Shown piece by piece: positions 10,240 through 50,929 of a stretch of DNA of 51,044 nt. The number at the start of each line of letters is the position of its first letter. Within the stretch, counting starts at the first letter, position 1. Made by a program: the position numbers and the translations under genes. Where the stretch lies: NCBI RefSeq assembly GCF_947039425.1, contig NZ_CAMQYW010000003.1, positions 1-51,044 of the forward strand, given 5' to 3'. The DNA comes from an uncultured Cetobacterium sp. (GTDB lineage: Bacteria; Fusobacteriota; Fusobacteriia; Fusobacteriales; Fusobacteriaceae). The notes under the pieces were generated by a model. It was not told the origin of the DNA and did no database searches. It saw nothing but the letters and a program-made list of their open reading frames with translations.

Positions 10240-10314
10240 TGGAGGCGACGACCAGATTTGAACTGGTGAATAGAGATTTTGCAGACCTCTGCCTTACCAC
10301 TTGGCGACGTCGCC
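10240..10314 (-). tRNA. tRNA-Cys (GCA)
   Basis: Acceptor stem GGCGACG/CGTCGCC, anticodon loop CTGCAAA, T-loop TTCAAAT and encoded CCA. Last of seven tRNAs read leftward. Confidence 0.95.
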
Positions 10315-10332
10315 TTCTATTAAGTTAAAAAA

Positions 10333-10408
10333 TGGTGCCCAGAGGCGGAATCGAACCACCGACACGGGGATTTTCAGTCCCCTGCTCTACCGACTGAGCT
10401 ATCTGGGC
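10333..10408 (-). tRNA. tRNA-Phe (GAA)
   Basis: Acceptor GCCCAGA/TCTGGGC, anticodon stem GGGGA/TCCCC with loop CTGAAAA, T-loop TTCGATT, encoded CCA. Confidence 0.96.
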
Positions 10409-10439
10409 AAACCTTTTTTTATTCCTGCAAAATACCTTA

Positions 10440-10523
10440 TGGCGGAAGGCCAGAGACTCGAACTCTGAAGTCTTGCGACGCCGGTTTTCAAGACCGGTTC
10501 CTTACCAATTAGGGTAGCCTTCC
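10440..10523 (-). tRNA. tRNA-Ser (TGA)
   Basis: Acceptor GGAAGGC/GCCTTCC, anticodon stem CCGGT/ACCGG with loop CTTGAAA, a long variable arm GTC-GCAA-GAC typical of class II tRNA, T-stem CAGAG/CTCTG, encoded CCA. Confidence 0.95.
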
Positions 10524-10526
10524 ATA

Positions 10527-10601
10527 TGGTACTCCGTAGGGGAATCGAACCCCTGTTTATAGAGTGAAAATCTATTGTCCTAACCGTTGAACGAACGGAG
10601 C
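10527..10601 (-). tRNA. tRNA-Glu (TTC)
   Basis: Acceptor GCTCCGT/ACGGAGT, anticodon stem ATAGA/TCTAT with loop TTTTCAC, T-loop TTCGATT, encoded CCA. Only three bases separate it from tRNA-Ser. Confidence 0.95.
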
Positions 10602-10618
10602 ATCCTATTGAATTTTAG

Positions 10619-10694
<76 letters not shown>

Positions 10695-10729
10695 TTTGAT
10701 ATATATTTAATTTTGTTAATTTTAATAAA

Positions 10730-10806
10730 TGGCGGGAGTGACGAGGGTCGAACTCGCGACCTCATGCGTGACAGGCATGCGCTCTAACCAACTGAGCTAC
10801 ACCCCC
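10730..10806 (-). tRNA. tRNA-Asp (GTC)
   Basis: Acceptor GGGGGTG/CACTCCC with one G-T pair, anticodon stem GCATG/CATGC-type with loop CTGTCAC, T-loop TTCGACC, encoded CCA. Confidence 0.95.
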
Positions 10807-10809
10807 ATA

Positions 10810-10885
10810 TGGTGGAAACAACTGGACTTGAACCAGTGACCCCCTGCTTGTAAGGCAGGTGCTCTCCCAACTGAGCTATGCTTCC
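10810..10885 (-). tRNA. tRNA-Val (TAC)
   Basis: Acceptor GGAAGCA/TGTTTCC, anticodon stem CCTGC/GCAGG with loop CTTACAA, T-loop TTCAAGT, encoded CCA. First gene of the tRNA cluster. Confidence 0.95.
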
Positions 10886-13975: not shown

Positions 13976-14544
13976 TAAAATCCCTCTCTTAAATTAAAAA
14001 TATTTCTTTCCTTAGTTTTTTTAAAATATATCTCTTTTCTCTTTAAAGCCTTAACTTTTTCTTTTTTATTATTGATAATATACATAACTTCCACCTTTAA
14101 TACCATAGTATTTTTAGTTTTCTTTAAAAGGAAATTACTCTTTTTCAAAGTTAAAAACATTTCAGATTTTTCTATGCTTTTTAAAAATCTAAGAATCCTT
14201 TTTTCTTTTCCATAAATTTCTAAATATATTTTCTTATCATTATTTTTCTCATTAATATTTTTTTCTCTATCTACTAATAATAAATTTAATTGTAGTCTTT
14301 TGCATAATTTTTCAATAAAATTTATAAATTCTCCTGTTGAATTAAACTTTTTTTCTTTATTTATCTCTTTCAAGTTTTTATTATTTTTTTCTCTTTTATC
14401 ACTAGATAATTTAGTTTCTTTATATAAAATATTCAAATCCCTTATATCTCTGTCTATTAAATTAATTTTTTTATGTTTTATTTCAATTTTATTTTTTATT
14501 TTTTTAGAATCTAATACTAATTTTACAAAAACATAATAAATCAA
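13975..14544 (-). CDS. PilO-like pilus/secretion assembly protein; translation probably starts upstream
   Basis: Given from the first standard start (TTG 14544), but the open frame continues upstream to a stop near 14641 and encodes a membrane helix (about 14550-14600, IVILTIIIFELILIYYVFV). That helix is expected in PilO and is lost with the TTG start. A good SD (GAGGTGG, 14633-14638) is followed after seven bases by an in-frame ATA at 14625 and no ATG, GTG or TTG, so initiation may be at ATA or coupled to the preceding gene, whose stop lies at 14595. The periplasmic part is a coiled coil plus a ferredoxin-like fold (STGEFINFIEKLCKRL), as in PilO/GspM. Assignment by position and architecture. 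Confidence 0.7.
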   Translation of the reverse strand: MIYYVFVKLVLDSKKIKNKIEIKHKKINLIDRDIRDLNILYKETKLSSDKREKNNKNLKEINKEKKFNSTGEFINFIEKLCKRLQLNLLLVDREKNINEKNNDKKIYLEIYGKEKRILRFLKSIEKSEMFLTLKKSNFLLKKTKNTMVLKVEVMYIINNKKEKVKALKRKEIYFKKTKERNIFNLREGF

Positions 14545-17101: not shown

Positions 17102-17526
17102 AATTCACCTTTTATATTTTTAGGTCCAACTGCAGAAGTAGCTCTTATTTTTATTTCATTATTATTGTTTATATACACTTCTACATCTCCTCCATATTTT
17201 ATTTCATCAGCATCTGTCTTACTTCCTCCAATCTCTAGCAGTAAATTGACTCCTGTTAATTTTAAAGATTCATTTAAATAATTTTTTAATTTATCTAATT
17301 CTATTTGAGATATTGCTATATTTCCATCATCTAAAAAAAATTCTTTTCCATTTTCTAAATAGTAAGTTTCCGATGCCATACGAATTCCGTTTAAACTTGA
17401 TATCATTTTATTGTCCTTTGCCATTGCTAAGTAAACTCTCGTTTTAGGAACTAAAAAAGTTGCTAAAATACCTATTACACCTAAAACTAAAACAATCTCA
17501 ACAATACTAAATCCTTTTTTTTTCAT
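17086..17526 (-). CDS. Major prepilin (GspG/PilA-like)
   Basis: 146 residues: KKKG|FSIVEI with Glu5, a long hydrophobic N-terminal helix (VLVLGVIGILATFLVP), then a globular domain with GGDVEVYINNNNEIKIRA. Size and first position of the prepilin group suggest the main subunit. There is no obvious C-terminal disulfide. GAGGT precedes the ATG; the 3' end overlaps the prepilin peptidase. Confidence 0.85.
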   Translation of the reverse strand: MKKKGFSIVEIVLVLGVIGILATFLVPKTRVYLAMAKDNKMISSLNGIRMASETYYLENGKEFFLDDGNIAISQIELDKLKNYLNESLKLTGVNLLLEIGGSKTDADEIKYGGDVEVYINNNNEIKIRATSAVGPKNIKGELWEEM

Positions 17527-23319: not shown

Positions 23320-23350
23320 TTTTTTCTCCCTTTATTTTTGTTCATATACA

Positions 23351-23394: not shown

Positions 23395-24762
23395 TTATTT
23401 ACCTACACAAAAATTACTAAATATATGATCTAGAAGATCTTCATTACTAATTTCTCCAGTAACCTCTGATAAAGAATCTAAAGCTTCTTTTAAATCAACG
23501 GCAATTAGATCCATTGGTAATCCCATATTTATCGTTTCAAATATATTCTCTATCGCTTGTTTAGTTTTTTCTAGAGCTGATTTATGTCTTACATTTGTAA
23601 TTACTAATTTTTCAGAACTATCTTCTACTTGTCCTGAAATTACATAATTATAAATTTCATCTTCCATTTCATCAATTCCTATCTTTTCTAAAGCTGATAT
23701 TTTTATCCACTTTTTAATTTTCGTTAATGATGAAGTATCTAAATTCCCATTAACATCTGTTTTGTTTATCAATCCAATAACTTTACCAGAGTTAATTCTT
23801 TCATGAATCTTTAAATCTTCTTCATCTATTTCTCTAGAATTATCTACAACAAATAAAACTAAATCAGCTTTATCTATCATATCTTTTGATTTTTCAACTC
23901 CTATAGTTTCAACAACATCATCTGTTGCTCTTATTCCTGCTGTGTCAACAAGAACAAGTGGAATTCCTTTTAAGTTTATAACTTCTTCAATTATATCCCT
24001 TGTTGTACCAGCAACATTTGTTACTATAGCTCTTTCTTCTTTTAAGATAGAGTTTAATAAGCTTGATTTTCCAACATTTGGTTTTCCTACTATAGCTGTT
24101 TTTACTCCCTCTTTAATCATTTTTCCTTTATTGTAGGATTTGATTAAAGTATCTGTTGTATTTATAACATGATGTAGATTATCTACTAGATCATCTGGTA
24201 AAGGATCATCTATTCCCTCTTCTGGATAATCAAGTACTACATTAACATGAGCTGAAACATCTAATAATAATTTTTTTAAAATATTTATTTGCTCTTTTAG
24301 ATCTCCTCTAAGTTGATCTAATGATAATGATATACTCTTATCTGTCTTTCCGTGAATTAGGTCTATTACAGCTTCTGCTTGAGTAAGATCTAATCTACCG
24401 TTTAAAAATGCTCTTCGAGTAAATTCACCTATCTCAGCGATTCTAGCACCACTTTTTAGAACTAGCTCTAATACTTTTTCTGTTATTAAGTATCCACCGT
24501 GACAATTTATTTCTACAATATCCTCTTTAGTATATGTATTTGGACCTTTCATTATTGAAACTAAAACTTCATCAATTAAAATCTCTTTATCATAAAGATG
24601 CCCATAATTTATACTAAAATTTCTTAAATCTTTAACTTCTTTTTTAGATACTGGTTTAAATATTTTTGTTAGTATACATATGGCATCTTTACCAGACATT
24701 CTAACAATTCCTATTCCGCCTTCTCCTCTAGGAGTAGATATTGCTGCAATAGTATCAAACAT
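23395..24762 (-). CDS. mnmE: tRNA modification GTPase MnmE (TrmE)
   Basis: 455 residues. The N-terminal folate-binding domain ([17 protein letters not shown]) is followed by a helical domain containing the G domain: P-loop [22 protein letters not shown]. The C terminus ends in FCVGK, a variant of the catalytic CIGK. Partner of MnmG in forming cmnm5U34. GGGGTGAG precedes the ATG. Confidence 0.97.
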
Positions 24763-26755: not shown

Positions 26756-26786
26756 AAAAACCCGGTGTATTTGTTCACCGGGTTTT
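26756..26786 (-). terminator. Terminator or attenuator between rpmH and rnpA
   Basis: CCCGGTG (26761-26767) with CACCGGG (26776-26782), extended by A/T pairs and ending in a T run on the minus strand. It overlaps the rpmH stop codon; partial read-through into rnpA is likely. Confidence 0.8.
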
Positions 26787-26919
26787 ATGCTGATAATACT
26801 TTTCTTCCTCTAGCTCTTCTTCTCTTTAATACTTTTCTTCCGTTTTTAGTAGCCATTCTAGCTCTGAACCCGTGATCTTTCTTGTATTTTCTGTTATTTG
26901 GCTGATAAGTTCTTTTCAT
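26785..26919 (-). CDS. rpmH: 50S ribosomal protein L34
   Basis: 44 residues translated by hand: starts [18 protein letters not shown], continues [20 protein letters not shown] and ends RKVLSA. This is the complete L34 sequence pattern. TAGGAGGTGAAAAA gives an excellent SD. In many bacteria rpmH lies directly beside oriC/dnaA; here a plasmid-type initiator takes the other side. Confidence 0.98.
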
Positions 26920-26957
26920 TTTTTCACCTCCTAAAAATATCTATATTTCAGATAAAT

Positions 26958-26986
26958 ATTTTAGAAGAAAATTTGCCTTTTGTCAA
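26958..26986 (-). promoter_or_regulatory. Promoter of rpmH
   Basis: TTGACA (26981-26986) and TAAAAT (26958-26963) with a 17-base spacer on the minus strand, about 40 bases before the rpmH start. Confidence 0.8.
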
Positions 26987-27393
26987 GTAAATTCTCATAA
27001 TAAAAATTATAAGAAGATGAAATATTTAACTTTTTTTTAATTATTTAAAAATAAATCCCCCTGTTGTTTTTGTTTTTTGTATAATGTTATATGTACAGAC
27101 TAAGATGGAAAAAAAACACCCGTAATATCCTTGATTTTACTGGATTTATTGTTTAAAAAATATTATTGTGCGTATACACAGTAGAATACCCTTTAGTTAT
27201 AAGGTTTTGAACTAAAATAAAAAGAATAAACCTTTATAAATCAATAGGTTATAAAGATATAAAAATATTATTGTTAATAGACATTTAAGAAACATATTGA
27301 TTTTGTTGAATATATATAAATTTAAAAGAATAAAAAAAGAGAAAAAGCTATATAAATCAATATGTTTTATTAAAATAAATATATTATTGTTTA

Positions 27394-27530
27394 TATACAT
27401 AAATAGAAAGCTATATTTTTCAATGGAGAACATTATTGTAAGATATAAAAAGATCAATAAAATCAAAGGGTTATTATTTATTATAAATATTATTGTACGT
27501 ATACATAAATAGAAAGCTATATTTTTCAAT
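27394..27530 (+). repeat. Two identical 31-base blocks attached to iterons 3 and 5
   Basis: The last seven bases of iterons 3 and 5 plus 24 following bases are identical (27394-27424 and 27500-27530; includes AAATAGAAAGCTATATTTTT, which has a short AAATA..TATTT dyad). In addition an ATAAATCAATA-like element precedes iterons 2 and 3, so the region looks built by duplication of a unit of roughly 100 bases. Confidence 0.8.
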
Positions 27531-27607
27531 ATATTTATAATCAAAATTATGCGAAGATCTAGTAAAAATAAAGATTAGATGACAATTAAAAAAAGAAAAA
27601 AATATTA

Positions 27608-27636
27608 TTGTTTATATACAGAAAAAATGGTATAGT
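27608..27636 (+). promoter_or_regulatory. Promoter of rep, overlapping iteron 6
   Basis: TTGTTT (27608-27613) inside iteron 6 and TATAGT (27631-27636), 17-base spacer; iteron 7 lies just downstream of the expected transcription start. Binding of Rep to iterons 6 and 7 would repress its own promoter, a standard plasmid autoregulation layout. Confidence 0.6.
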
Positions 27637-27692
27637 ATATTACGCAAATTTTTAAATATTATTGTACGTATACATATGAAAAAGGAGTTTTT

Positions 27693-29504
27693 ATGGAGAA
27701 TAAATCAAAAGATATTAGTGATATTGTTGAAAATTTTAAAATAAGTTCAACGGGCTCATTATTAACTGATATAACTAAAATAGATATAAAATTAAATCAA
27801 GTTCCTGATATAGAAGTAAGGGAAGTAATAATAAAAGAAACAGGAAATTTTTTAAATTTAAAAGATAATATTATAAATATTCCAGTTGAAATGATCGTAT
27901 TTCCATTTTTTACTCCTCAAAAGCAAAATAAAAGAGTAAACTTTCAATACTCCTTTGAGGATCTAGGAGTAACAATGTACTGTACATTAGTGGCTAAGGA
28001 TGGAAAAGATAAAGTATTTCAACCATCAATATTTGAAGAAAAAATATATACTTACTTAATATCAACATATGAAATGAAAAAAGATTTAAATGACGAAGAT
28101 GAGTATATAGAGTTTGAAATTTCAGATTTTATAGTTAACTTTTTAGGTAATAAAATGAATAGAACTTATTATACAAAAGTTGAACAAGCTTTGAAAAATT
28201 TAAAAAATACAGAATATCAATTTATAGTTTCAAATCACACTAAACTTGGGAAATATAAATTTGAAGATGAAGAGTTTAAACTCTTAACATATCAGAAATT
28301 AAAAAAAGGTAAAAAAATTTATTATAGAGTAACATTGAATAAAAATATTAGAAAAAAAATTAGTGATAAGAGATATATTAAATATAACTCAAAAGCTTTA
28401 ATGGAGATTTTAGCTAAAGATCCAATTGCAGGAAGAATTTATAAATATATTAGTAAAATAAGATATGAAAAACAAGAAGATAAAATAAATTTAAGAACAA
28501 TAGCTGCAATAATTCCATTAAAAACAGAGCAAATAACAGAAAGAGCTAATAAGAATGGTGAGATAAAAAAATATATTTTATGTAGAATGAAACAAGTTTT
28601 AAAAAGGGTAAAAAAAGCTTATGATGTATTAGTTGAACTTGGTTATGTTGAGTATTATGAGTCTTTTATTTCTAAAGAAGAAGAAACATATTATATTATT
28701 TATAAATTTAATCCCAATAAAGATGGAAATTGTCATGTTTCAACGTTTATAGAAGGAAATAAATTAAATAAACCAAGAGAGTTAACTTATAGTGGATCTA
28801 AAGAAAAAGAGAAGAAATATAAAGATCTAGAAATAGAAGAAGCAGAAGTAATAGATATTGTGGAAATAAATAAAACAGAAAAAATTAAAAAAACAATAAT
28901 AAAAAAAGAAAAGAAAAGTGATTTTGATTTTCCTGAAAATATATCTAAATATATTCAAAAAGCTAAAAAAAATATATATGCTTCTAGAGCTTGGGATAAA
29001 AGAACAGATACAAAATTAAAAAAAATTCTTATAGAAGAGGGAGATTTAATACTAATAGAAGTTTTGAAAATTATATATAAAAATTTAAATTCTAATATAA
29101 AAACAACCTTAGTTCAATATATAAACGGTGTTTTAAAAAATTTATTATCTCAAGAAAATGCAGAATCTAAGCAAAATCTAACACTTTTTAATAATATAGT
29201 TAAAGAAAAAGGGTTAATTAGTAAGAAAAAAATAAATCAAGCAAGGAAAACAGTAAAGAAACCAGTAATAAATAGTATAAAGGATTTAATAGAAGATTCA
29301 GAAATTTCTACAGATATATTAAAAGTTTTTGATGAATATGATGAATATGAAAAATTAAAAATAGAGGAAAGAGCGATCAATATATGTTCTGTAGAAGAAA
29401 GCATCGATATTAATTTTTTACTTACAATGAAAAGAAAATCTCAAAAGATATATTTTAATACAATAAAAAAATATATTGAAAGAGTAATTAACGAGGAGGG
29501 TTAA
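27693..29504 (+). CDS. Plasmid-type replication initiator protein (RepA/RPA-like)
   Basis: 603 residues, Lys-rich. The region of residues about 60-330 (IPVEMIVFPFFTPQKQN, then FQPSIFEEKIYTYLIST, then MEILAKDPIAGRIYKYIS and VKKAYDVLVELGYVEYYE) has the arrangement of winged-helix initiators of iteron plasmids and resembles the replication initiator protein A family (PF10134) by sight. A charged linker (about 370-415) leads to a helical C-terminal domain. It has no AAA+ Walker motifs and is not DnaA. AAGGAG is eight bases before the ATG. No parA/parB, transposase or resolvase accompanies it, and codon usage looks like that of its neighbours. It occupies the place of dnaA next to rpmH. Family call moderate; initiator role supported by iterons. 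Confidence 0.8.
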   Translation: MENKSKDISDIVENFKISSTGSLLTDITKIDIKLNQVPDIEVREVIIKETGNFLNLKDNIINIPVEMIVFPFFTPQKQNKRVNFQYSFEDLGVTMYCTLVAKDGKDKVFQPSIFEEKIYTYLISTYEMKKDLNDEDEYIEFEISDFIVNFLGNKMNRTYYTKVEQALKNLKNTEYQFIVSNHTKLGKYKFEDEEFKLLTYQKLKKGKKIYYRVTLNKNIRKKISDKRYIKYNSKALMEILAKDPIAGRIYKYISKIRYEKQEDKINLRTIAAIIPLKTEQITERANKNGEIKKYILCRMKQVLKRVKKAYDVLVELGYVEYYESFISKEEETYYIIYKFNPNKDGNCHVSTFIEGNKLNKPRELTYSGSKEKEKKYKDLEIEEAEVIDIVEINKTEKIKKTIIKKEKKSDFDFPENISKYIQKAKKNIYASRAWDKRTDTKLKKILIEEGDLILIEVLKIIYKNLNSNIKTTLVQYINGVLKNLLSQENAESKQNLTLFNNIVKEKGLISKKKINQARKTVKKPVINSIKDLIEDSEISTDILKVFDEYDEYEKLKIEERAINICSVEESIDINFLLTMKRKSQKIYFNTIKKYIERVINEEG

Positions 29505-31898: not shown

Positions 31899-32948
31899 AT
31901 GGCATTTGATGATTTTTTTATGAAAGTAAAAAAAGAAAATATACTTCATAATTATAGATATTTAAAAGAATCAAAAAAAAAAGAGATTATTGCAGTTGTA
32001 AAAGCTAATGCTTATGGACATGGAATTGAGCAAGTTGTAAAATTATTACAAGAGGAAGGGTGTAAATATTTTGCAGTTGCTAGGATTTGGGAAGCTAAAA
32101 AAATATTGAGATTGAAGTTAAAAAATATAAAAGTATTAGTTTTAGAAACGATAGAAGAGATGGAATTATTAAAAGTTTTTGATGAACTTGAAATTTTTAT
32201 TAACAGCATATCAGATTTAAAAAAAGCATTATCTAAAGGAATATCAACATCACAAATGCATTTAAAAATAGATTTTGGATTTGGACGAAATGGAATTTTA
32301 GAAAGTGAGATTAAAAAATTAGAAAAAATAATACAAGAAAATGATTTGAAGTTTAAAGGCATAGCTACTCATCTATTTGATTGTACACATGAAGATATGT
32401 TGGATATTGAAAATAAATTTGATAAAATTATTTCTAATTTAGGAAGAGATAGATTTGAGATGATACACTCTCAAAACAGTGCAGGAGTAATATCCATTGA
32501 GGGAAAGGGTTGTACTCATATAAGATGTGGAACAATATTATTTGGACTACAAGAAATAGGTTATTATGATCCTTATATAAAGAGATCAATTTTCTTAGTT
32601 GGAAAAATTTCAGGAATAAAAGAAGTGAAAAATTTAAAGTATATAGGATATGAAAAAAAAGAAAATTTAAATATTTTAGATACAGATAAAGTTGCAAAGA
32701 TTAGAATAGGTTATGGAGATGGATTATCGAAAAGAAGCGAAAATATTATGTCTATAATCAATAATAAAAAATATAAAATAATACATATAAGTATGGATAG
32801 TTCTTTTGTAGTAGTTGATGATTCAGTAAAAGTGGGAGATGAAATCGAAATTTTTCATGATCTAGAAGAAGCAATAGATTATTTAAAAGTGCCACACTAT
32901 GAATTTTTATCTTGTATAAATGATCGAATAGAAAGAGTGTTAATTTAA
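31899..32948 (+). CDS. alr: Alanine racemase
   Basis: 349 residues from ATG 31899 (AAAGGAGAAAAT upstream; the TTG at 31866 is not needed). Interconverts L- and D-alanine for peptidoglycan with PLP. Lys35 in VKANAYGHG binds PLP; KIDFGFGRNG, IHSQNSAG, RCGTILFG and the C-terminal GYGDGLSKR with the catalytic Tyr are present. The protein ends at IERVLI, slightly short of model enzymes. Monocistronic between two terminators. Confidence 0.9.
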   Translation: MAFDDFFMKVKKENILHNYRYLKESKKKEIIAVVKANAYGHGIEQVVKLLQEEGCKYFAVARIWEAKKILRLKLKNIKVLVLETIEEMELLKVFDELEIFINSISDLKKALSKGISTSQMHLKIDFGFGRNGILESEIKKLEKIIQENDLKFKGIATHLFDCTHEDMLDIENKFDKIISNLGRDRFEMIHSQNSAGVISIEGKGCTHIRCGTILFGLQEIGYYDPYIKRSIFLVGKISGIKEVKNLKYIGYEKKENLNILDTDKVAKIRIGYGDGLSKRSENIMSIINNKKYKIIHISMDSSFVVVDDSVKVGDEIEIFHDLEEAIDYLKVPHYEFLSCINDRIERVLI

Positions 32949-33877: not shown

Positions 33878-33906
33878 TTGACTTAGGAAATTATTTTTGT
33901 TAATAT
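33878..33906 (+). promoter_or_regulatory. Promoter of the sigma-54 activator gene
   Basis: TTGACT (33878-33883) and TAATAT (33901-33906), 17-base spacer. Its TAAGTCAA partner upstream (33852-33859) is the -35 of the divergent promoter, so the two -35 boxes form a TAAGTCAA...TTGACTTA dyad. Confidence 0.65.
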
Positions 33907-33941
33907 ACATATAAAAAACATAGTATTTTCAAGGGAGAGTA

Positions 33942-40887: not shown

Positions 40888-41158
40888 ATTTGTACGCACA
40901 GGTGATAGTATAAAGTATAAAATTATGGTTCTTTTGATTAAAAGGGAATTAAGTATAAGCTTAAACGGTCCCGCCACTGTAATGATGACGAAAATAGAAA
41001 AACCACTGAAAGTAATATTTTGGGAAGGGCTATTAGTAGGATGAATCTAAGTCAGGATACCTGCCATAATTAGTATATCTGCGCGGACAGAGAAGAGTAT
41101 TCAACATTTAATAAACTCTTCTCTCAAATTTAACTTAATTTATTTGGGAGGGTTTTAC
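40888..41158 (+). promoter_or_regulatory. Cobalamin riboswitch and expression platform
   Basis: The conserved core elements are present in order: AAAGGGAA (40940s), CCCGCCACTG (40970-40979), GGGAAGG, and the complete B12 box AGTCAGGATACCTGCC (41050-41065). A hairpin AGAGAAGAGT/ACTCTTCTCT (41089-41098 with 41115-41124) without a T run follows. The CTCTTCTCTC arm could also pair with the SD GGGAGGG at 41146-41152, so control is probably translational. It governs the CbiK genes and probably the BtuFCD genes behind them. Confidence 0.92.
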
Positions 41159-42996: not shown

Positions 42997-43851
42997 ATGA
43001 AAAGAATAATATTTTTATTTATATGTATATGTACATTAATATTAGGAAAAGAAAAAACCAAATTAAGAGCAGTATCTACAGCGCAGTTTACAACAGAGAT
43101 ACTTCTATCAATTGGAGCAGAAGATCAAATGATAGGAACTTCTTTTTTAGACGATAAAATATTACCAAGTTTAAAAAAGCAATATGATAAAATACCAGTA
43201 TTATCAGAGAGAGCTCCAACAAAAGAGCAATTTTATTCAATAAATCCAAATTTTTTAATTGGATGGAAATCAATAGCTACAGAGAAAAATCTAGGAACAC
43301 CAGAAGAATTAAAAGAGAACGGAGTAGAAGTGTATTTTACAAAATCACAAAATAGCAGTAAAATAGATGATATTTATAAAGATATATTAACTTTAGGTGA
43401 AAAATTTAATGTGGAAAAAAATGCTGAAAATGTTGTGAAAAATATGAAAAGTGAAATAGCAAAAATAAAAATAAAAAAATCAGAGAAACCTGTAAAAGTA
43501 TTTGCATATGACAGTCAAGAAACAGCTCCTTTTGTAGTTGGAGGAGGAGGTATTGGGAATACGCTAATTGAAATGGCAGGTGGAGAAAATATATTTAAAA
43601 ATACATCTTTTTCTTTTGGAACAGGAACTTGGGAAAGGGTATTAGATGAAAATCCTGATTATATAGTAGTAGTAGATTATGGAAAAGTTAATTATAAAGA
43701 TAAAATCAAATTTTTAAAAGAAAACTCTCCTATTTCAGAAATTTCAGCAGTAAAAGAAAATAAATTTATAGTAGTTCCTTTAAGTTATTTATCTGCAGGA
43801 GTAAGAGTTCCTTATGCAGTTAAATTAATGGCCGAGGGATTTAATAAATAA
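42997..43851 (+). CDS. Periplasmic binding protein of a BtuF/FecB-type ABC importer
   Basis: 284 residues. Signal peptide (1-17, IFLFICICTLILGK), no lipobox Cys. The class III binding-protein fold is visible: LRAVSTAQFTTEILLSIGAED, NPNFLIGWKSIA, GGGGIGNTLIEMAGGENIF, LDENPDYIVVVDYG. It is placed behind a B12 riboswitch and two chelatases and before its permease, so the ligand is probably a corrinoid or related tetrapyrrole. Ligand choice is inference. Confidence 0.85.
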   Translation: MKRIIFLFICICTLILGKEKTKLRAVSTAQFTTEILLSIGAEDQMIGTSFLDDKILPSLKKQYDKIPVLSERAPTKEQFYSINPNFLIGWKSIATEKNLGTPEELKENGVEVYFTKSQNSSKIDDIYKDILTLGEKFNVEKNAENVVKNMKSEIAKIKIKKSEKPVKVFAYDSQETAPFVVGGGGIGNTLIEMAGGENIFKNTSFSFGTGTWERVLDENPDYIVVVDYGKVNYKDKIKFLKENSPISEISAVKENKFIVVPLSYLSAGVRVPYAVKLMAEGFNK

Positions 43852-50749: not shown

Positions 50750-50774
50750 ATGTTTTATTGAAGAATATAAAAAT

Positions 50775-50929
50775 GTTTAATATGGAAATAAGGTTAAATT
50801 CCTTTACGGCCCCGCCACTGTAAAATTGACGAAACTATATAAACCACTGACTAAAAAGTTGGGAAGGGATAGGAGTAGGATGAAGTTAGTCAGGATACTT
50901 TTAGACATTTAATCTCGAGGGAGGAAAAA
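50775..50929 (+). promoter_or_regulatory. Second cobalamin riboswitch, divergent B12 box
   Basis: CCCCGCCACTGTAAA (about 50810), GGGAAGGGATAGGAGTAGGATGAAG-type core and AGTCAGGATAC (50888-50898) are present and align with the first riboswitch, but the 3' part of the B12 box, CCTGCC in the first copy, is replaced by TTTTAGA. No separate hairpin with T run follows; the SD GAGGGAGGA (50917-50925) is close, so control is probably of translation. Confidence 0.85.

What the first reader, a model, noticed from the sequence alone, without database searches (positions are those of the whole stretch)
26920..29504. Chromosomal origin region with a plasmid-type initiator and iterons in the place of dnaA
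Seen: the rpmH-rnpA-yidD-yidC-jag-mnmE-mnmG block, which in most bacteria flanks oriC/dnaA, ends at a 773-base AT-rich gap containing seven same-orientation 22-base iterons, followed by a 603-residue Rep-like gene without AAA+ motifs. Gene polarity flips exactly here (29 of 32 protein genes leftward on one side, 20 of 23 rightward on the other). No perfect DnaA box is visible. Known: iteron-Rep systems drive plasmids and secondary chromosomes, and integrated plasmids can suppress dnaA defects. Inference: this chromosome may start replication, wholly or partly, from a plasmid-derived Rep/iteron module. The absence of parAB, transposases or a foreign composition argues against a fresh plasmid insertion. 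I cannot check whether this is already described for the group.
Basis: partly seen in the sequence, partly recalled or inferred. Interest (0 to 1): 0.92.

Follow-up and report, generated by a model that had tools for sequence, protein, structure and literature searches.

The report
Plasmid-type initiator replaced dnaA at chromosome origin
In the whole bacterial family Fusobacteriaceae (the family of Fusobacterium), the near-universal gene that starts chromosome copying, dnaA, is missing, and a plasmid-style replication gene with its own binding sites sits exactly in its place at the chromosome's origin.

Summary
The window is from a Cetobacterium-like member of Fusobacteriaceae. DnaA is absent from all 61 Fusobacteriaceae genomes searched (14 genera) but present in all 24 other Fusobacteriales searched; Rep is in 56 of 61. 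Relatives have rpmH<-oriC->dnaA-recF-dciA-gyrB-gyrA; Fusobacteriaceae have rpmH<-iterons->rep-recF-dciA-gyrB-gyrA: a gene-for-gene swap in which DnaA boxes vanish and iterons appear. GC skew turns at this point in four complete chromosomes sampled. Chromosomal Reps form one group apart from Reps on Fusobacteriales plasmids, including one in Haliovirga, whose chromosome keeps dnaA. Best reading: the family's ancestor captured a plasmid initiator at oriC, lost DnaA and kept DciA for helicase loading. Iteron-type sites are also about 20-fold enriched within 50 kb of the origin. I found no description of this; a 2007 paper called the ORF a putative dnaA. Rep binding and origin firing remain untested.

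The parts
26785..26919 (-). rpmH, last gene of the ancestral oriC-flanking block (rpmH-rnpA-yidD-yidC-jag-mnmE)
   Evidence: translation [18 protein letters not shown]...; same junction in the relatives
26920..27692 (.). putative origin: 773-bp AT-rich (81%) intergenic region with iterons and no DnaA box
   Evidence: GC-skew sign change
27161..27178 (+). iteron 1 TATTATTGTGCGTATACA
27266..27283 (+). iteron 2 TATTATTGTTAATAGACA (1 mismatch)
27382..27399 (+). iteron 3 TATTATTGTTTATATACA
27488..27505 (+). iteron 4 TATTATTGTACGTATACA
27603..27620 (+). iteron 5 TATTATTGTTTATATACA
27657..27674 (+). iteron 6 TATTATTGTACGTATACA, 18 bp before the rep start codon (also a plausible autoregulatory site)
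   Evidence: regulatory role inferred
27693..29504 (+). rep: plasmid-type replication initiator (RPA family) in the slot held by dnaA in relatives
   Evidence: PF10134 1.4e-7; best PDB fold match RctB domains 2-3; in 56 of 61 family genomes
14067..14084 (+). satellite iteron-type site (-13.6 kb), in a coding region
   Evidence: also at -13.6 kb in G005 and G009
17160..17177 (+). satellite iteron-type site (-10.5 kb), in a coding region
23333..23350 (+). satellite iteron-type site (-4.4 kb), between the 21469-23319 gene and mnmE
   Evidence: at -4.2 to -4.4 kb in G003, G004, G005, G006, G009, G010
24661..24678 (+). satellite iteron-type site (-3.0 kb), inside mnmE
   Evidence: conserved in Cetobacterium
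32749..32766 (-). satellite iteron-type site (+5.1 kb), inside alr
   Evidence: conserved in Cetobacterium
33892..33909 (+). satellite iteron-type site (+6.2 kb), intergenic
43024..43041 (-). satellite iteron-type site (+15.3 kb), in a coding region

Best explanation
This is the replication origin of the main chromosome, and it uses a captured plasmid initiator instead of DnaA. Shown by sequence: rep took dnaA's exact slot between rpmH and recF, the DnaA boxes are gone, a family-specific iteron array replaces them, the chromosome's skew turns here, and no DnaA is encoded. Inferred: Rep, probably a tandem winged-helix protein of the RPA/RctB/Pi type with a helical C-terminal part, binds the same-strand iterons about ten helical turns apart, loops or stacks them to melt the AT-rich gap, and brings in DnaB through the retained loader DciA; replication then runs both ways. 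Rep probably represses its own gene through the promoter-proximal iterons. Scattered satellite sites around the origin may titrate Rep or let it regulate nearby genes, as DnaA boxes do elsewhere. The switch most likely happened once, in the Fusobacteriaceae ancestor.
For: DnaA absent from the family (PF08299 0/61; PF00308 no full-length match in 37) and present in 24/24 other Fusobacteriales. Rep in 56/61; of the five misses, G013's contig ends 476 bp from rpmH and G028 is 70% complete and lacks rpmH too, G080 and G083 are 62-76% complete, G078 is a draft. Gene-for-gene replacement rpmH/[ori]/(dnaA or rep)/recF/dciA/remA/gyrB/gyrA. DnaA boxes 60 vs 2.7 expected in 8 dnaA origins, 1 vs 5.1 in 29 rep origins; iteron matches 0 in the former and 1-8 in each of the latter. 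GC-skew turn at rep in G015, G030, Ilyobacter (G035) and G027, and in the window. Iterons almost all on one strand in 29 gaps. Chromosomal Reps separated from the main group of plasmid Reps by a 100/99 branch; Reps start all three Ilyobacter replicons and the Haliovirga plasmid pHIC beside parAB. Fold match to RctB domains 2-3 and Pi. DciA found in 55/61 genomes of the order.
Against: No experimental proof of Rep binding, strand opening or origin firing. The models are of low confidence (pLDDT 59 and 64) and no Foldseek E-value is below 0.001. Iteron spacing differs from classic iteron plasmids. The contact between Rep and DciA/DnaB is inferred. In G027 a block at about 1.95-2.47 Mb has inverted skew, most simply a rearrangement, so that chromosome has a second neg-to-pos turn.
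Confidence: 0.9

Rival explanations
1. The gene is simply a very divergent DnaA, as the 2007 F. [quoted passage not shown]
For: Position next to recF/gyrB and rpmH.
Against: No PF08299 and no full-length PF00308 match in any family member; matches PF10134 above cut-off instead (15 of 25 aligned members); BLASTP to Haliovirga DnaA finds nothing; DnaA boxes absent; homologous to plasmid Reps.
Confidence: 0.02
2. Rep and iterons are a plasmid remnant, or a second or dormant origin; the real origin lies elsewhere and uses an unrecognised initiator.
For: Extra Rep copies occur in the family (e.g. G026:C1).
Against: Conserved at one syntenic slot across the genera, skew turn at this place in complete chromosomes, no parAB at the chromosomal locus, no alternative initiator found.
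Confidence: 0.05
3. Chromosome replication here is initiator-independent (transcription- or recombination-primed, as considered for DnaA-less cyanobacteria); Rep only regulates genes.
For: DnaA-independent replication exists in cyanobacteria (PMC7198777).
Against: Sharp skew reversal at rep-iterons, unlike a multi-origin pattern; conserved iterons and an initiator-family protein.
Confidence: 0.03

Closest known systems
RPA-type plasmid replication initiators (PF10134) and their relatives on Fusobacteriales plasmids (pILYOP01, pILYOP02, Haliovirga pHIC)
   Same: Homologous Rep; direct repeats upstream of rep (clearest in pILYOP02); pHIC carries parAB beside rep
   Different: Here on the main chromosome, a separate orthologous group, no parAB, iterons about 105 bp apart and of another sequence, standing in dnaA's slot
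RctB / ori2 of Vibrio chromosome 2
   Same: Best fold match in PDB (5ubf, 5tbf: prob 0.91-1.00); iteron-type origin on an essential replicon; initiator sites also away from the origin
   Different: RctB runs a secondary chromosome beside a DnaA-run main one; here there is no DnaA and Rep is on the main chromosome; no sequence similarity detected
DnaA-oriC of other Fusobacteriales (Haliovirga, Leptotrichiaceae)
   Same: Same genomic slot, same neighbours, same DciA loader
   Different: Initiator protein unrelated by sequence; DnaA boxes replaced by iterons
dnaA-less cyanobacteria and insect endosymbionts
   Same: Loss of dnaA
   Different: No replacement initiator is known in its place and some replicate from multiple origins (PMC7198777); here one plasmid-type Rep/iteron origin replaces it across a whole family

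Membership tests
RPA replication initiator family (PF10134) | Match above Pfam's curated cut-off | tested here: met
   31.8 bits vs cut-off 27; F. vincentii 31.5 bits; 15 of 25 aligned members match at E <= 0.01
Iteron-controlled replicon | Several same-orientation direct repeats just upstream of rep, rare elsewhere | tested here: met
Iteron-controlled replicon | AT-rich segment suited to melting | tested here: met
   gap 81% AT; 70-90% AT in 50-bp steps
Iteron-controlled replicon | Contiguous or near-contiguous iterons (about 20-22 bp pitch) | tested here: not met
   pitch mostly about 105 bp, 52-116 bp in Cetobacterium
Iteron-controlled replicon | Rep binds the iterons | not testable with these tools
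   needs EMSA or ChIP
DnaA | AAA+ domain (PF00308) and domain IV (PF08299) | tested here: not met
DnaA-oriC origin | DnaA-box cluster | tested here: not met
   1 TTWTNCACA in 29 gaps, 5.1 expected; positive control in relatives 60 vs 2.7
RctB | Sequence homology | tested here: not met
   no RctB hit in phmmer or hmmsearch of PDB chains
RctB / RepE / Pi fold group | Tandem winged-helix fold | tested here: inconclusive
   Foldseek puts RctB domains 2-3 first (full model) and, for the core model, RctB second and Pi with iteron DNA fourth, but models have pLDDT 59-64 and E is 0.005-0.13
Secondary chromosome / chromid | Co-exists with a DnaA-run main chromosome | tested here: not met
   no dnaA in the genome; the locus carries the main-chromosome origin block

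The most novel reading that the evidence does not exclude
A whole bacterial family, including human-associated fusobacteria, lost DnaA outright and runs its main chromosome only on a plasmid initiator captured in the dnaA slot, with a newly evolved constellation of Rep sites around the origin that took over DnaA's titration and gene-regulation roles.
Probability: 0.6. Interest if true: 0.96.

Novelty: new variant of a known kind. Interest (0 to 1): 0.93.

Why it matters
DnaA is treated as the universal initiator of bacterial main chromosomes; a 2020 paper states that outside cyanobacteria no free-living species without dnaA had been reported (PMC7198777). Here a complete, old and clean replacement appears, with the before and after states both preserved in living relatives and even a possible kind of donor (a plasmid beside a DnaA chromosome in Haliovirga). 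It makes directly testable whether a plasmid initiator can run once-per-cycle replication of a main chromosome, what takes over DnaA's other roles, and whether the initiator of fusobacteria is a family-specific drug target. It also implies that DnaA-box-based origin finders should fail in this family.

Tried and rejected
Viral contigs and phage records hold no relative, so a phage origin was dropped. Rep-missing genomes were checked: G013 has its contig break right at rpmH, G028 lacks rpmH as well; G078, G080 and G083 were not followed up. The weak PF00308 hits in frames of 180-297 aa were taken as DnaC/IstB-type ATPases, not DnaA, since no PF08299 accompanies them. Helical phasing of iterons at about 10.5 bp is suggestive (unique spacings p about 0.001 for a preset period, but periods near 12 fit as well when searched, and the genomes are related), so it is offered only as a hint. 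Ten paper searches found no description of DnaA loss in Fusobacteriaceae; only open-licence papers are held, so this is not proof of novelty. A DnaA profile alignment failed on coordinates and a single-pair BLASTP was used instead.

Full report
The observation. The window is contig C3 of a 2.05-Mb draft; its relatives are Cetobacterium and other Fusobacteriaceae. The minus-strand block mnmE-jag-yidC-yidD-rnpA-rpmH ends at 26919; a 773-bp, 81% AT gap follows, then a 603-codon rep on the plus strand. Six sites match TATTATTGnnnnTATACA with at most one mismatch, all on the rep strand, 105-116 bp apart with a last step of 54 bp. No DnaA-box match lies in the gap. GC skew changes sign at 26-28 kb.

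DnaA is missing from the family. The DnaA AAA+ profile finds full-length DnaA in all 24 Fusobacteriales genomes outside Fusobacteriaceae and in none of 37 inside; only weak matches in short frames, of the DnaC/IstB kind, appear there. The DnaA-specific domain IV is in 24 of 24 and 0 of 37, and in 0 of 61 when all held Fusobacteriaceae are searched, including several complete genomes. Rep is in 56 of 61, in all 14 genera. G013 breaks 476 bp from rpmH and the 70%-complete G028 lacks rpmH too; the other three (G078, G080, G083) are drafts.

Rep sits in dnaA's slot. In Haliovirga the order is rpmH, origin, dnaA, recF, dciA, remA, gyrB, gyrA; Leptotrichiaceae keep much of it. In Ilyobacter and in the L014 and L018 lineages it is rpmH, iterons, rep, recF, dciA, remA, gyrB, gyrA; Propionigenium shows the rep-side order (rpmH is off its contig), and F. 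vincentii has rpmH, rep, recF, gyrB, gyrA. In Cetobacterium the recF-dciA-gyr block moved away and ptsHI follows rep. A 2007 genome paper placed the F. [quoted passage not shown] by position this must be the same ORF (inference). It is not DnaA: PF10134 matches above cut-off, DnaA profiles do not, and BLASTP to Haliovirga DnaA finds nothing.

The cis sites swapped too. Eight rpmH-dnaA gaps hold 60 DnaA boxes (2.7 expected) and no iteron; 29 rpmH-rep gaps hold one DnaA box (5.1 expected) and one to eight iteron matches each. With a weight matrix nearly every iteron in the 29 gaps lies on the rep strand.

It is the origin by skew. In complete chromosomes G015, G030 and Ilyobacter (G035) skew turns from negative to positive at rep and back roughly opposite. 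G027 does the same at rep but has an inverted-skew block at about 1.95-2.47 Mb, which gives a second neg-to-pos turn.

Where it came from. Haliovirga abyssi has dnaA on its chromosome and a Rep relative beside parAB on its 298-kb plasmid. In Ilyobacter each of the three replicons begins with its own Rep. In a maximum-likelihood tree the chromosomal Reps are divided from the main group of plasmid Reps by a 100/99 branch; a few very long plasmid branches are placed uncertainly. A single capture in the family's ancestor is the simplest reading.

How it may work. AlphaFold models are of low confidence (pLDDT 59 and 64), but Foldseek puts RctB domains 2-3, the initiator of Vibrio chromosome 2, first for the full protein (prob 1.00, E 0.005) and second for the core, where Pi bound to iteron DNA is fourth. 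Weak profile hits to winged-helix proteins agree. DciA is found in 55 of 61 genomes of the order. So Rep probably binds iterons, opens the AT-rich gap and loads DnaB through DciA; binding, opening and loading are inferred.

Satellite sites. Iteron-type sites also lie singly around the origin. In eight genomes 77 sites fall within 50 kb of rep outside the gap and 82 in the remaining 17 Mb, a 20-fold enrichment. Several positions are conserved between species, some inside genes, some just after rep before recF. In Cetobacterium, where the recF-dciA-gyr block moved about 47 kb, a site at -49.5 kb lies by it. Titration, regulation or segregation are possible; none is tested, and coding conservation may explain some.

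Novelty. Iteron Reps on plasmids and secondary chromosomes are known, and so are dnaA-less cyanobacteria and endosymbionts. A plasmid-type initiator as the apparent sole initiator of the main chromosome in a whole free-living and host-associated family was not found in the held literature; I cannot exclude a description in papers not held.

Noticed in passing
window 14067, 17160, 23333, 24661, 32749, 33892, 43024; also G004, G005, G009, G030, G031, G063, G067, G068: Iteron-type sites outside the origin gap, about 20-fold enriched within 50 kb of the origin; several positions conserved across species.
   Followed up: partly
window 27344-27361, 27407-27424, 27513-27530: A second repeat, AAAGCTATATwwwTCAAT, lies between the iterons; function unknown, conservation in relatives not checked.
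   Followed up: no
L096 (G026) +1845, +1949, +2050, +2154 relative to rep start: A second array of four iteron-type sites with 101-104 bp pitch lies downstream of rep.
   Followed up: no
L097 (G026:C1:113500-133000): A second, divergent Rep inside a 448-kb contig, preceded by ten copies of an ATGAAAAGTnTATACATT-like repeat that shares the TATACA half-site with the chromosomal iteron: perhaps a chromid or integrated plasmid.
   Followed up: partly
NZ_CP084075.1 (L113): F. vincentii SB055 'plasmid pSB055A' of 2,108,235 bp carries the chromosomal origin block and looks like the chromosome mislabelled as a plasmid.
   Followed up: partly
L106 (G004:C6, 21,959 bp): Small contig that holds the origin region as an inverted duplicate with one degraded rep copy; probably a fold-back assembly artefact of the over-represented origin.
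   Followed up: no
G027:C1 about 1.95-2.47 Mb: Block with inverted GC skew in an otherwise two-armed chromosome, most simply a large inversion or misassembly.
   Followed up: partly
window 40909-41082 and 50753-50917: Two cobalamin riboswitches.
   Followed up: no
window 10243-10885: Cluster of seven tRNA genes on the minus strand.
   Followed up: no
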